64,000 nucleotides of DNA. Origin: an uncultured Clostridia bacterium. Lineage in GTDB: Bacteria > Bacillota > Clostridia > Monoglobales > Monoglobaceae. Numbering within the stretch: position 1 is the stretch's first letter; every line of letters starts with the position of its first letter. Both the position numbers and the translations under genes were made by a program. The DNA is taken from positions 62,001 through 126,000 of the forward strand of contig CANQQJ010000001.1 of the NCBI GenBank assembly GCA_947625905.1, given 5' to 3'. Shown here piece after piece: positions 18,232 to 62,716 of the stretch. Below the pieces are notes generated by a model. The model saw nothing but the letters and a program-made list of their open reading frames with translations, was not told where the DNA came from and searched no databases.

Positions 18232-18237
18232 TCTAAA

Positions 18238-18492
18238 AGAGCGATGAACGAGACAGTAACACACCGTAAAAGCTCAAAGAGAGGAAGCGCCGAGGGCTGA
18301 GAGCGCTTCCGTGCGGGCGGCGTGTGAACACCACTCGGGAGCTGCGCACTGAAAGACTGTTCGACTAAGTGCCGCCGTCCGTCCGCGACAAGGACATAAT
18401 AAGAGACAGCGAAAGCTGTAATTAGGGTGGAACCGTGCGTAAAATTATGCACCCCTAAGGCTCGGAGTATTCCGCGCTTTAGGGTGTTTTTG
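18238..18492 (+). promoter_or_regulatory. T-box riboswitch controlling thrS (Thr, ACC specifier)
   Basis: A T-box leader of about 255 nt. The 5' part begins AGAGCGATGAACGAGACAGTA, the stem I AGAGAG motif follows, and the specifier ACC at 18330-18332 sits in GAACACC and reads threonine. The T-box bulge sequence AGGGTGGAACCGTGCG lies at 18424-18439. A terminator (CACCCCTAA ... TTTAGGGTG, then TTTTT at 18487-18491) competes with the antiterminator. Uncharged tRNA-Thr should allow read-through into thrS. Confidence 0.95.
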
Positions 18493-20273: not shown

Positions 20274-20280
20274 TATTGCC

Positions 20281-20460
20281 TCGCCCATTGGGGAGAGGTG
20301 GATTTCCGCCTAAGGCGGAAAGACGGAGAGGGGTTAACATAGGTACTGGGAATTAGCAACTAGGGACTAGGTCTCCATCTCAGTCTGCTTTGAAGACAAT
20401 AGTTAGCGGTGACCCGCGAATCGCCGCGTTTGTAGGGACGGATATTATCCGCCCGCTCAA
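20281..20460. repeat. Cluster of REP-like repeats between thrS and the DUF362 gene
   Basis: No gene. It contains a hairpin element (TTGGGGAGAGGTGGATTT, then CCGCC-TAA-GGCGG, then AAAGACGGAGAGGGGT, 20289-20335), a TAGGGACTAGG-type repeat (20352-20372), and CGGATATTATCCGCCCGC (20440-20457). All three families recur elsewhere in the window. Confidence 0.8.
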
Positions 20461-25834: not shown

Positions 25835-26012
25835 TAACCCCTCTCCGCCTGCTTCGCAGGCACCATTAAGGAAGCTCTTAGTCAAAATTGCAAGCAATTT
25901 TGAAATATAGCTTTGAACCCGCAAGCAAGCTTGCTGATTATCCCCAAGGGGAGAGGCAGAATCCGGCTCGCCCCTTGGGGAGAGCTGTCACCGAAGGTGA
26001 CTGAGAGGTGTC
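25835..26012. repeat. Composite REP-like element, interrupted
   Basis: No gene. CCTCTCCG-hairpin-CAC on the left (25838-25864) and CCCCAAGGGGAGAGG on the right (25941-25955) are the two halves of one element, separated by about 75 bp that carry TCAAAATTGC/GCAATTTTGA. A second element, GGCTCGCCCCTTGGGGAGAG with GTCACCGAAGGTGAC and TGAGAGG, follows at 25963-26012 and recurs at 28429-28477 and 62520-62566. Confidence 0.8.
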
Positions 26013-28393: not shown

Positions 28394-28478
28394 GCGGATA
28401 TTATCCGCCCGCCGGCACGGATTGTAAACCCCTCTCAGTCACCTACGGTGACAGCTCTCCCCAAGGGGCGAGCCGGGA
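28394..28478. repeat. REP-like segment between the direct repeats
   Basis: An 85-bp spacer with CGGATATTATCCGCCCGC (also at 20440) and an inverted copy of the GCCCCTTGGGGAGAG / GTGAC hairpin element found at 25963 and 62520. No gene. Confidence 0.85.
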
Positions 28479-54364: not shown

Positions 54365-54397
54365 AAAAGCGAAATTTGTGTTTTGAAAATAAAATTT

Positions 54398-54494
54398 GAA
54401 GAGTAAGAGCGCGTGCGTTAAGTGTTGTCGGGACGGGGAGTTGTCCGATGAACGAAAAGCTTAGGCTTGCGGTTCGCGCTTTGCATCCCGCTTC
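54398..54494 (+). promoter_or_regulatory. Tetrahydrofolate (THF) riboswitch
   Basis: The sequence follows the THF class core: closing stem GAAG/CTTC, GAGTA, the pairing AGCGCG/CGCGCT, then TGCGTTAAGTG, GGGACGG, AACGAAAAGC and TTTGCATCCCGC. The pseudoknot partners GGGA and TCCC are present. It precedes a folate transporter, the known target of this class. Between 54495 and 54560 a CTGC/GCAG hairpin with TTTTC may act as a terminator or the control may be on translation. Confidence 0.92.
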
Positions 54495-54580
54495 ATAGAG
54501 CAATGTTAAAATTCTGCGCGCATAAAGCAGTTTTCTTTACCTTGCTATATGGGTGAGGCTGAAAGGAGGCTGTTATTTTT

Positions 54581-60931: not shown

Positions 60932-61038
60932 AAAATTACTCCGTTTCATTACATATTAATTACTAAAAAGTATTATAGCACAACCGTTTTGAAATTGCAA
61001 CAACAAAAAACGCCGGTGCCGAAAGGCAGGGCGCTTGC

Positions 61039-61067
61039 TTGACAATATGTGTCGAATTTGGTATAAT
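61039..61067 (+). promoter_or_regulatory. Consensus promoter of the type I toxin-like locus
   Basis: TTGACA, a 17-nt spacer and TATAAT, both perfect. Transcription should start near 61074, in a leader of more than 100 nt before the peptide frame. Confidence 0.92.
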
Positions 61068-61149
61068 AAAAAACGTGGAAGCCGCCGCTTTGCCATGCGC
61101 GGGCGGCTTGACGGCTAAGACGGTTGCCTTGACATCCCGCTTGAGCGGA

Positions 61150-61305
61150 ATGGAGGCGAATGTACAGCTCTTGACGGGAAATATTCTCGAAAGGAGGTTG
61201 ATACATATTACTTTTTCTTGTTTTATAGGCGTGTGTACAGTTATCAGTACATTCGTCTGTGTGATCAAGTTTGTTCTTGATTTACACGATAGAAAGAAGA
61301 AGTGA
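61150..61305 (+). CDS. Small hydrophobic peptide, possible type I toxin
   Basis: A frame of up to 51 residues from the ATG at 61150, ending TGA at 61303. The C-terminal 35 residues hold one transmembrane segment (FSCFIGVCTVISTFVCVIKF) and a charged end LDLHDRKKK, the layout of holin-like or Fst/BsrG-type toxins. A strong AAGGAGG at 61191-61197 lies inside the frame, but no ATG, GTG or TTG follows at a useful distance; ATT at 61207 is 9 nt away. So either the ATG at 61150 with a weak site, or a rare start giving about 33 residues, is used. The family was not recognised. Confidence 0.5.
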   Translation: MEANVQLLTGNILERRLIHITFSCFIGVCTVISTFVCVIKFVLDLHDRKKK

Positions 61306-61329
61306 GCCGTCTGCTGCAACAGACGGCTC
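61304..61329 (+). repeat. Hairpin at the peptide stop codon
   Basis: GAGCCGTCTG-CTGCAA-CAGACGGCTC is a perfect 10-bp stem whose first bases include the TGA stop. No T-run follows, so it may protect or fold the mRNA rather than end it. Confidence 0.8.
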
Positions 61330-61403
61330 ATGATTATGTAGTGATATATTCACTATATATTGTGTAATGTCAACTTGCGGCAACCGTCCGGCCTTCCGCA
61401 ATT

Positions 61404-61432
61404 GAGAGGTTGCTTCGGCAATCTCTCTTTTT
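61404..61432 (+). terminator. Terminator of the type I toxin-like transcript
   Basis: GAGAGGTTGC-TTCG-GCAATCTCTC followed by TTTTT. With the promoter at 61039 it defines a transcript of about 360 nt. Confidence 0.93.
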
Positions 61433-61497
61433 ACATGATTATAATAACATACTCAAACCCAATTGTCAAGCAATATTTTAATTTTGTCATCAAAGCG

Positions 61498-62457: not shown

Positions 62458-62716
62458 CCCACCTCCGTCTTTTCGCCTTCGGCGAAAATCCACCTCCTCC
62501 CGGGAGGAGGCATAAAATAGGCTCGCCCCTTGGGGAGAGCTGGCGCCGAAGGCGACTGAGAGGGGTTCGTTTCCCGCATCCGCACAAGTTACCCCTCTCC
62601 GTCAGGCTTACGCCTGACACCTCTCCCCAAGGGGCGAGGCAGACAGCCGCCTGGGGCTCCAATTCATTTATGAGGGGGATCCTAGTCCCTAGAATCTATT
62701 TTCCTATTCCCTATGT
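62458..62716. repeat. Array of four REP-like elements before the secreted-protein gene
   Basis: No gene. In order: an inverted copy of the 23096 element (62458-62511), a GGCTCGCCCCTTGGGGAGAG / GGCGCCGAAGGCGAC element (62520-62566), CCTCTCCGTCAGGC-TTAC-GCCTGACACCTCTCCCCAAGG, here given in two parts (62593-62612 and on to 62636), and a CCTAGTCCCTAGAATCTATT repeat (62680-62716). Confidence 0.85.

What the first reader, a model, noticed from the sequence alone, without database searches (positions are those of the whole stretch)
61039..61432. Type I toxin-like locus with 5'-3' complementarity in its mRNA
The sequence shows a perfect promoter, a leader of more than 100 nt, a short membrane peptide ending in HDRKKK, a hairpin at the stop codon and a strong terminator. 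The leader (61119-61135) is complementary over 17 pairs to the 3' region (61367-61388). In known type I toxins such as hok and AapA, pairing of the mRNA's two ends keeps it untranslated until processing. The peptide family was not recognised. A minus-strand TTGACA at 61368-61373 could be part of an antisense RNA promoter, but its -10 is poor. A MITE with terminal inverted repeats is the alternative.
Basis: partly seen in the sequence, partly recalled or inferred. Interest (0 to 1): 0.72.

Follow-up and report, generated by a model that had tools for sequence, protein, structure and literature searches.

The report
Clostridial type I toxin–antitoxin candidate
This looks like a small bacterial self-poisoning gene whose messenger RNA pairs its two ends together, with an antisense RNA running back over its tail; it belongs to a family seen here in Clostridia and phage contigs that matched no known RNA or protein family we searched.

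Summary
The locus (about 61035-61473) is one of 17 complete related elements collected from Clostridia genomes and IMG/VR contigs. Most share a near-consensus promoter, an mRNA beginning near GUGGAA, 5' and 3' ends that pair, a Shine-Dalgarno (SD) hairpin, a single-span peptide of 28-32 residues, a hairpin on the stop codon, and a convergent promoter. The terminal helix covaries (position 10: five pair types, 15 of 15 paired; permutation P about 7e-5).

Best reading: a type I toxin-antitoxin locus laid out like bsrG/SR4. Unlike hok/AapA, folding keeps the SD in a local hairpin whether or not the ends pair. Instead the 3' arm competes with a leader hairpin for one leader segment, and the antisense RNA resembles the mRNA's own 5' arm. 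Nine of 17 members seem to start on AUU or AUA.

Three sister species lack about 495 bp at this site with no evident target duplication, so a simple MITE is disfavoured. No transcript or toxicity has been measured, and the step that would turn translation on is unexplained. New variant of a known kind.

The parts
61039..61067 (+). sense promoter, TTGACA-17-TATAAT
   Evidence: 12/12; 11-12 of 12 in 14 of 17 elements, 7-9 of 12 in L007, L050 and L062
61075..61083 (+). 5' arm of terminal helix H1 (GUGGAAGCC), at the predicted transcription start
   Evidence: 6-7 nt after the -10 in 16 of 17 elements; covariation
61119..61135 (+). 5' arm of helix H2 (GACGGUUGCC, extended by UUGACAU)
   Evidence: fold; arm near-invariant in 17 elements
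61124..61160 (+). leader hairpin LH, which competes with H2 for the UUGCC segment
   Evidence: predicted when the 3' arm is removed: mean pairing at least 0.73 in 16 of 17; no two-sided changes among its pairs
61161..61205 (+). hairpin that holds the Shine-Dalgarno sequence AAGGAGG (61191-61197)
   Evidence: 4 of its consensus pairs have two-sided changes
61207..61305 (+). toxin-like peptide, 32 aa, one hydrophobic span, KKK end; apparent AUU start 9 nt after the SD
   Evidence: start assigned by hand; pooled pN/pS 0.29 among relatives
61303..61330 (.). stop-codon hairpin; on the minus strand the likely antisense terminator, its T-run lying in the Lys codons
61335..61359 (.). 3' UTR hairpin, variable in sequence
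   Evidence: local hairpin predicted in 15 of 17, at least 2 sd better than shuffles in 7 of 17
61367..61388 (+). 3' arm of H2
61390..61399 (+). 3' arm of H1 (one extra base compared with most relatives)
61404..61432 (+). sense intrinsic terminator
61441..61469 (-). antisense promoter, TTGACA-17-TATTAT
61293..61434 (-). predicted antisense RNA, about 140 nt
   Evidence: inferred from promoter and terminator; only the part 61399-61292 was folded
61003..61497 (.). segment absent from the same site in three sister species (approximate limits)

Best explanation
A type I toxin-antitoxin-like locus. Shown from sequence: two convergent promoters; a frame for a 32-residue single-span membrane peptide; 5' and 3' segments of the sense RNA (about 360 nt, 61074-61432) that pair under evolutionary constraint; and the promoter and terminator of an antisense RNA of about 140 nt that would overlap the mRNA from the stop codon to its 3' end. 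Inferred: the mRNA is made as a stable closed molecule with both ends buried and its SD in a local hairpin, and, with a poor AUU/AUA start codon, gives little peptide. The antisense RNA pairs with the mRNA's 3' part and strips the 3' arm from the 5' arm. The freed leader arm then folds onto the leader's GGAGGC stretch (hairpin LH), and the long duplex is a substrate for RNase III. If the antisense RNA is lost, as when a prophage or the locus is lost, the stable mRNA persists and the peptide damages the membrane.
For: 17 complete elements. Antisense promoter 10-12 of 12 in 17 of 17, and 6-8 T in the 9 bases after the stop-codon stem in 17 of 17. H1 covariation: position 10 has five standard pair types, 15 of 15 paired (window and L003 left out); permutation P 0.00007 with 10 representatives; partner slid by 1-2 bases 47-64 of 110 against 107 of 110. 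H2 mean pairing at least 0.86 in 15 of 17, and LH at least 0.73 in 16 of 17 once the 3' arm is removed. Highest 19-residue hydropathy 1.71-2.52 in the 16 peptides with an assigned start; pN/pS 0.29. Phage genes near some members and a present/absent site. One relative (L053) keeps the antisense half but not the leader. Published bsrG/SR4 has the same layout: 294-nt mRNA, 180-nt antisense, pairing at the 3' ends, refolding round the SD (PMC7430163 passages).
Against: No transcript, toxicity or antitoxin effect has been measured. No peptide scanned reached a curated family cut-off, and PHROGs gave only hits at E 0.095 or worse. Nine of 17 members lack ATG, GTG or TTG at the start position, and L048 has no clear start. 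Folding does not free the SD in either state, so how translation is switched on is unexplained. LH has no pair with two-sided changes in the 17-row alignment. L048 and L054 prefer LH over H2 at full length, and in L050 the leader GGAGGC becomes less, not more, paired when the 3' arm is removed. The sense promoter is weak in L050 and L062 (9/12, 8/12). The Lys-rich tail may owe its codons to the antisense T-run rather than to peptide function.
Confidence: 0.72

Rival explanations
1. A type I toxin locus of hok/AapA logic: end pairing keeps the mRNA inactive until 3' trimming opens it, and the antisense RNA catches the opened form.
For: 5'-3' pairing starting near the first transcribed bases, conserved with covariation; precedent of a 5'-3' interaction and a 3' activation step in AapA (PMC6733600 passages).
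Against: In silico removal of the 3' arm does not expose the SD in any of 17 elements, and on average hides the leader GGAGGC more (mean unpaired 0.35 to 0.11, L050 going the other way). The predicted antisense RNA covers the 3' end, not the leader.
Confidence: 0.15
2. An antisense-controlled membrane peptide that is not a self-toxin, for instance a phage-borne exclusion or regulatory peptide.
For: Several members lie near phage genes; toxicity is untested.
Against: Poor start codons, a buried SD and a dedicated antisense promoter point to tight repression; other members have non-phage neighbours.
Confidence: 0.09
3. A sense/antisense pair of regulatory RNAs whose open frame is incidental.
For: 9 of 17 members lack ATG, GTG or TTG at the start position; one more has no clear start.
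Against: Fewer non-synonymous than synonymous changes (pooled pN/pS 0.29, small counts); SD-to-start spacing of 7-9 nt and a hydrophobic span in 16 of 17.
Confidence: 0.03
4. A MITE with terminal inverted repeats.
For: 35-nt arms, 74% complementary; absent from this site in sister species.
Against: One copy in its genome, no evident target duplication, arms are promoters plus similar RNA starts, covariation between the RNA ends.
Confidence: 0.01

Closest known systems
bsrG/SR4 and txpA/RatA (Bacillus subtilis type I systems)
   Same: Antisense pairs with the mRNA 3' part; SD in a short double-stranded region; small hydrophobic toxin; bsrG/SR4 lies on a prophage. In bsrG/SR4 the antisense pairs with the 3' part of helix P1 and its binding lengthens the region hiding the SD (passages of PMC6562991 and PMC7430163).
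   Different: No match in the family libraries searched; here the mRNA 5' terminus pairs with its 3' end and the antisense resembles that 5' arm; many AUA/AUU starts. A direct sequence comparison with these toxins was not made.
aapA/IsoA (Helicobacter) and hok/Sok
   Same: 5'-3' long-distance interaction in the toxin mRNA, alternative hairpins (PMC6733600 passages).
   Different: Here the SD is predicted in a local hairpin independent of the end pairing, and the antisense RNA would overlap the 3' end.
par of pAD1 (Fst)
   Same: Convergent promoters, 33-residue toxin, SD hidden in a stem-loop, non-AUG (GUG) start (PMC7472228 passages).
   Different: par has direct repeats and one shared bidirectional terminator; here the repeats are inverted and the two terminators are separate.
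Clostridioides difficile convergent type I modules (CD2517.1-RCd8 and others)
   Same: Class Clostridia, convergent overlapping genes, long leaders (PMC6563280 passages).
   Different: Those toxins are 50-53 residues; sequence kinship was not tested here.

Membership tests
type I toxin-antitoxin (general) | small hydrophobic peptide gene with its own promoter and ribosome site | tested here: met
type I toxin-antitoxin (general) | antisense RNA complementary to the toxin mRNA | tested here: inconclusive
   promoter-like site and T-rich tail for it in 17 of 17; no transcript seen
type I toxin-antitoxin (general) | peptide toxic, antisense protects | not testable with these tools
   needs expression in a laboratory strain
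bsrG/txpA-like layout | convergent genes overlapping at their 3' ends | tested here: met
   from promoters and terminators only
bsrG/txpA-like layout | peptide sequence kinship | tested here: inconclusive
   no hit above cut-off in Pfam or NCBIfam for 9 of 16 peptides scanned; whether those libraries hold BsrG/TxpA models was not checked
Fst/par | direct repeats crossed by both RNAs and one bidirectional terminator | tested here: not met
   repeats inverted; terminators at 61303-61330 (minus) and 61404-61432 (plus)
Hol-Tox (PF16935) | match above gathering score | tested here: not met
   12.5 bits against 23.3, in L054 only, of 9 peptides scanned
hok/AapA | mRNA 5'-3' pairing | tested here: met
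hok/AapA | end pairing responsible for hiding the SD, removed by 3' trimming | tested here: not met
   by folding only: SD about equally paired without the 3' arm; not measured
MITE | many copies with target duplications | tested here: not met

The most novel reading that the evidence does not exclude
A switch by 5'-end mimicry: mRNA and antisense RNA carry the same 5' elements (GUGGAA, then AAGACGGUUGCC), so the antisense takes the place of the mRNA's own 5' arm on the 3' arm by strand exchange. This frees UUGCC to fold onto the leader GGAGGC and shuts off ribosome loading, so end pairing is the permissive state, the reverse of hok/AapA. Toxin output is further limited by AUA/AUU initiation.
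Probability: 0.25. Interest if true: 0.75.

Novelty: new variant of a known kind. Interest (0 to 1): 0.6.

Why it matters
It would add a family of type I modules in Clostridia and their phages that peptide-based annotation is likely to miss (tiny frames, AUA/AUU starts). It gives a covariation-supported example of an mRNA closed from near its first base to its 3' end, and a testable inverse of the hok/AapA logic. It also shows dense sharing of sequence: the peptide's Lys codons and stop codon form the antisense terminator, and in the members with a 6-nt gap the sequence just after the 3' arm overlaps the antisense -10.

Tried and rejected
Rfam: nothing at gathering score over the locus; Ref1C 25.8 bits against 90 and istR 18.8 against 45 are sub-threshold. 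Plasmid records: no match. Phage records: one match of 36 query bases (MT838668, E 0.08) that on reading looks like chance in coding sequence. A second leader pattern found 0 viral contigs. Of the other 7, three (L017, L019, L020) were read and are unrelated, as is the viral contig L032; four (L022, L025, L026, L031) were not read and are assumed chance. Leader micro-ORF AUGUACAGCUCUUGA: not kept in L024, better explained as the strand that pairs with the SD. The A:B leader pairing (CCCG with CGGG) is possible but was not tested by counts. Structure prediction of the peptide was not run.

Full report
Check of the observation. The 364-nt RNA folds at -153.4 kcal/mol against -103.2 (sd 5.1) for 100 shuffles. 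The fold shows more than was reported. Not only 61119-61135 but GUGGAAGCC at 61075-61083, at the predicted start of transcription, pairs with the 3' side (61390-61399), so the molecule would be closed from its 5' end. On the minus strand the scan finds TTGACA-17-TATTAT at 61469-61441 (11/12). The 701-base region gave 5 promoter-like sites against 1.6 expected.

Relatives. The element is single-copy in its own 2.96-Mb genome; a second short match is the stop-codon hairpin itself on the other strand. The own genome is counted in the figures that follow. With the 411-base DNA, 8 of 60 relatives and 8 of 38 genomes of the family match; with the leader alone, 8 of 51 of the order. A covariance model of the leader found 9 of 391 class genomes, four of them in other families (L045, L046, L047, and weak L048 at E 6.8e-5). 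A pattern of the 3' arm found 7 of 391 in the class, 0 of 398 in a phylum draw, and 3 of 95, 1 of 9 and 1 of 16 in three orders; the reversed-pattern control had 0 hits in the rows shown. The window's own genome does not match that pattern, so these pattern counts are lower bounds. In IMG/VR the 3'-arm patterns found 2 and 5 contigs, the stop-hairpin pattern 1 and two leader patterns only one chance hit. Record titles of relatives include uncultured Monoglobus, uncultured Ruminococcus and Clostridia bacterium. In all, 17 complete elements, the window included, were collected; L051 and L063 are partial. L053 keeps only the antisense half, beside a gene that I read as birA-like by eye.

Anatomy across the 17. 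The sense promoter scores 11-12 of 12 in 14; the exceptions are L007 (a duplicated segment pushes its -35 out of the scanned stretch), L050 and L062. The -10 lies 6-7 nt before GTGGAA in 16 of 17. An antisense promoter of 10-12 of 12 is present in 17 of 17; shuffles of the same stretch reached the score at most 4 times in 200 for any element. In five members (L048, L050, L054, L061, L062) the antisense -10 is 6 nt before the GTGGAA-like start, so both RNAs would begin alike. In five others (L007, L008, L024, L045, L047) the gap is 13-19 nt. In seven Monoglobus-type members including the window it is 37-41 nt, and in the window the sense terminator lies in that gap.

Covariation of the ends. 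For H1 the window and L003 were left out because their 3' arm carries an extra base; 15 rows remain. Positions 1-10 pair in 149 of 150 cells. Position 7 has G-C, A-U and G-U; position 10 has five standard pair types and pairs in 15 of 15; position 11 pairs in 8 of 15. With one representative per close group (10 rows) and the four variable positions, chosen after seeing the data, 37 of 40 cells pair against 29.9 in permutations (P 0.00007; Watson-Crick pairs only, P 0.00012). Sliding the partner by 1-2 bases drops pairing from 107 of 110 to 47-64. The permutation does not fully remove relatedness. H2 is nearly invariant, so it says little by covariation. In the 17-row leader alignment, 4 of 17 consensus pairs have two-sided changes, all in the SD hairpin; the leader hairpin LH has none. 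In a 14-row alignment (L054, L061, L062 not given) the stop-codon stem has two pairs with two-sided changes, from L048. In partial L051 the stem is kept while the stop codon is lost (read). A hairpin in the 3' UTR is predicted in 15 of 17 (not L004, L006), but only 7 of 17 are at least 2 sd more stable than shuffles and L062 is no better. Between window and L003 that region has 23 differing columns of 45, against 1 of 90 in the leader and 2 of 96 in the frame.

Two alternative leader states. In full-length folds H2 has mean pairing at least 0.86 in 15 of 17; L048 (0.14) and L054 (0.16) prefer LH. When the 3' arm is cut off in silico, UUGCC pairs with the leader GGAGGC stretch (LH at least 0.73 in 16 of 17; L061 0.34), and the mean unpaired probability of that stretch falls from 0.35 to 0.11. 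In L050 it rises instead, from 0.06 to 0.17. The SD is mostly paired in both states in all 17 (unpaired at most 0.33). So folding does not support the simple view that opening the ends frees the SD; the state-dependent site is the leader GGAGGC.

The peptide. It has 28-32 residues in the 16 elements with an assigned start, with one hydrophobic span and a Lys-rich end. By hand assignment the start is ATG in 5, GTG in 2, ATT in 3 (including the window), ATA in 6 and unclear in 1 (L048), 7-9 nt after the SD. Eight of the nine ATT/ATA members have other possible starts in frame: in the window an ATG 19 codons upstream and a TTG three codons upstream that touches the SD; GTG three codons upstream in L061; TTG three codons downstream in L050 and L062. 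In L047 an in-frame stop lies just before the ATA and the next ATG, GTG, TTG or CTG is 19 codons downstream, so a non-standard start is forced there unless the frame is dead. AUA and AUU starts with extended SD sequences are documented in Staphylococcus aureus (infC, ccpN, cvfC1; PMC13009471 passages). Pooled pN/pS is 0.29 over five pairs that are not all independent, with few changes. Nine of the 16 peptides were scanned against Pfam and NCBIfam and four against PHROGs. None reached a cut-off. The best sub-threshold hits were DUF6556 (16.4 bits against 28.1) and DUF4064 (15.2 against 32.1) in L054, COX14 (14.5 against 25) in L024, ComI (12.7 against 55) in L050, and Hol_Tox (12.5 against 23.3) in L054.

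Setting. Sister genomes G002, G004 and G005 have the two neighbouring genes without the roughly 495-bp segment and without a target duplication that I could see; G002 and G004 carry other family members elsewhere (L009, L005). G010 has the element at the same place; one 2860-bp alignment across element and flanks is 92% identical. L050, L061, L062 and L063 lie on contigs with phage genes near by (tail sheath, Rha-like and anti-repressor, terminase, tape measure), and L047 lies between an IrrE-like peptidase and a phage minor tail gene. In one search ten neighbours were scanned; others were citrate synthase (L048), phosphoglucomutase (L054), M56 peptidase (L004) and heparinase-like (L024), and three had no hit.

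Mechanism and comparison. The layout matches bsrG/SR4 and txpA/RatA: pairing at the 3' ends, SD in a short duplex, and for SR4 a refolding that hides the SD further (passages of PMC6562991 and PMC7430163). It differs from par/Fst (direct repeats, shared terminator) and from AapA (end pairing hides the SD). The part of the antisense RNA from the 3' arm to its tail folds into a 5' hairpin, weaker stems, then the terminator hairpin (six of 17 folded). I infer that it takes over the 3' arm, lets LH form and exposes the duplex to RNase III. The proposal that end pairing is the permissive state is the boldest reading and is unproven; the lack of two-sided changes in LH counts against it.

Print search. 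Searches for AUA/AUU starts with type I systems (15 of 413 and 10 of 123 papers listed) and for such loci more generally (20 of 43, 2 of 2, 12 of 37 and 1 of 1 listed) showed no title or abstract start that describes this family. That covers open-licence PMC papers only, and only the rows listed.

Noticed in passing
window 18235-18459 (+) and 54397-54495 (+): T-box leader and THF riboswitch at Rfam gathering score.
   Followed up: no
window 62520-62542, 62618-62640, 20278-20300, 25965-25987, 28452-28474: A 23-base palindromic repeat (CACCTCTCCCCAAGGGGCGAGGC-like) in 5 places, 0 expected by chance; related short repeats flank the kinase gene in G010 and G002.
   Followed up: partly
L053 (G435:C5) about 1400-1560: Antisense half of the element alone, leader lost: a possible orphan antitoxin.
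   Followed up: partly
L051 reverse strand, 3' element at 116: Stop-codon stem kept by paired changes although the stop codon itself is lost, so the peptide frame runs on.
   Followed up: partly
L007 about 125-170: Tandem duplication of the -10 box and GTGGAAAT start of the sense RNA.
   Followed up: no
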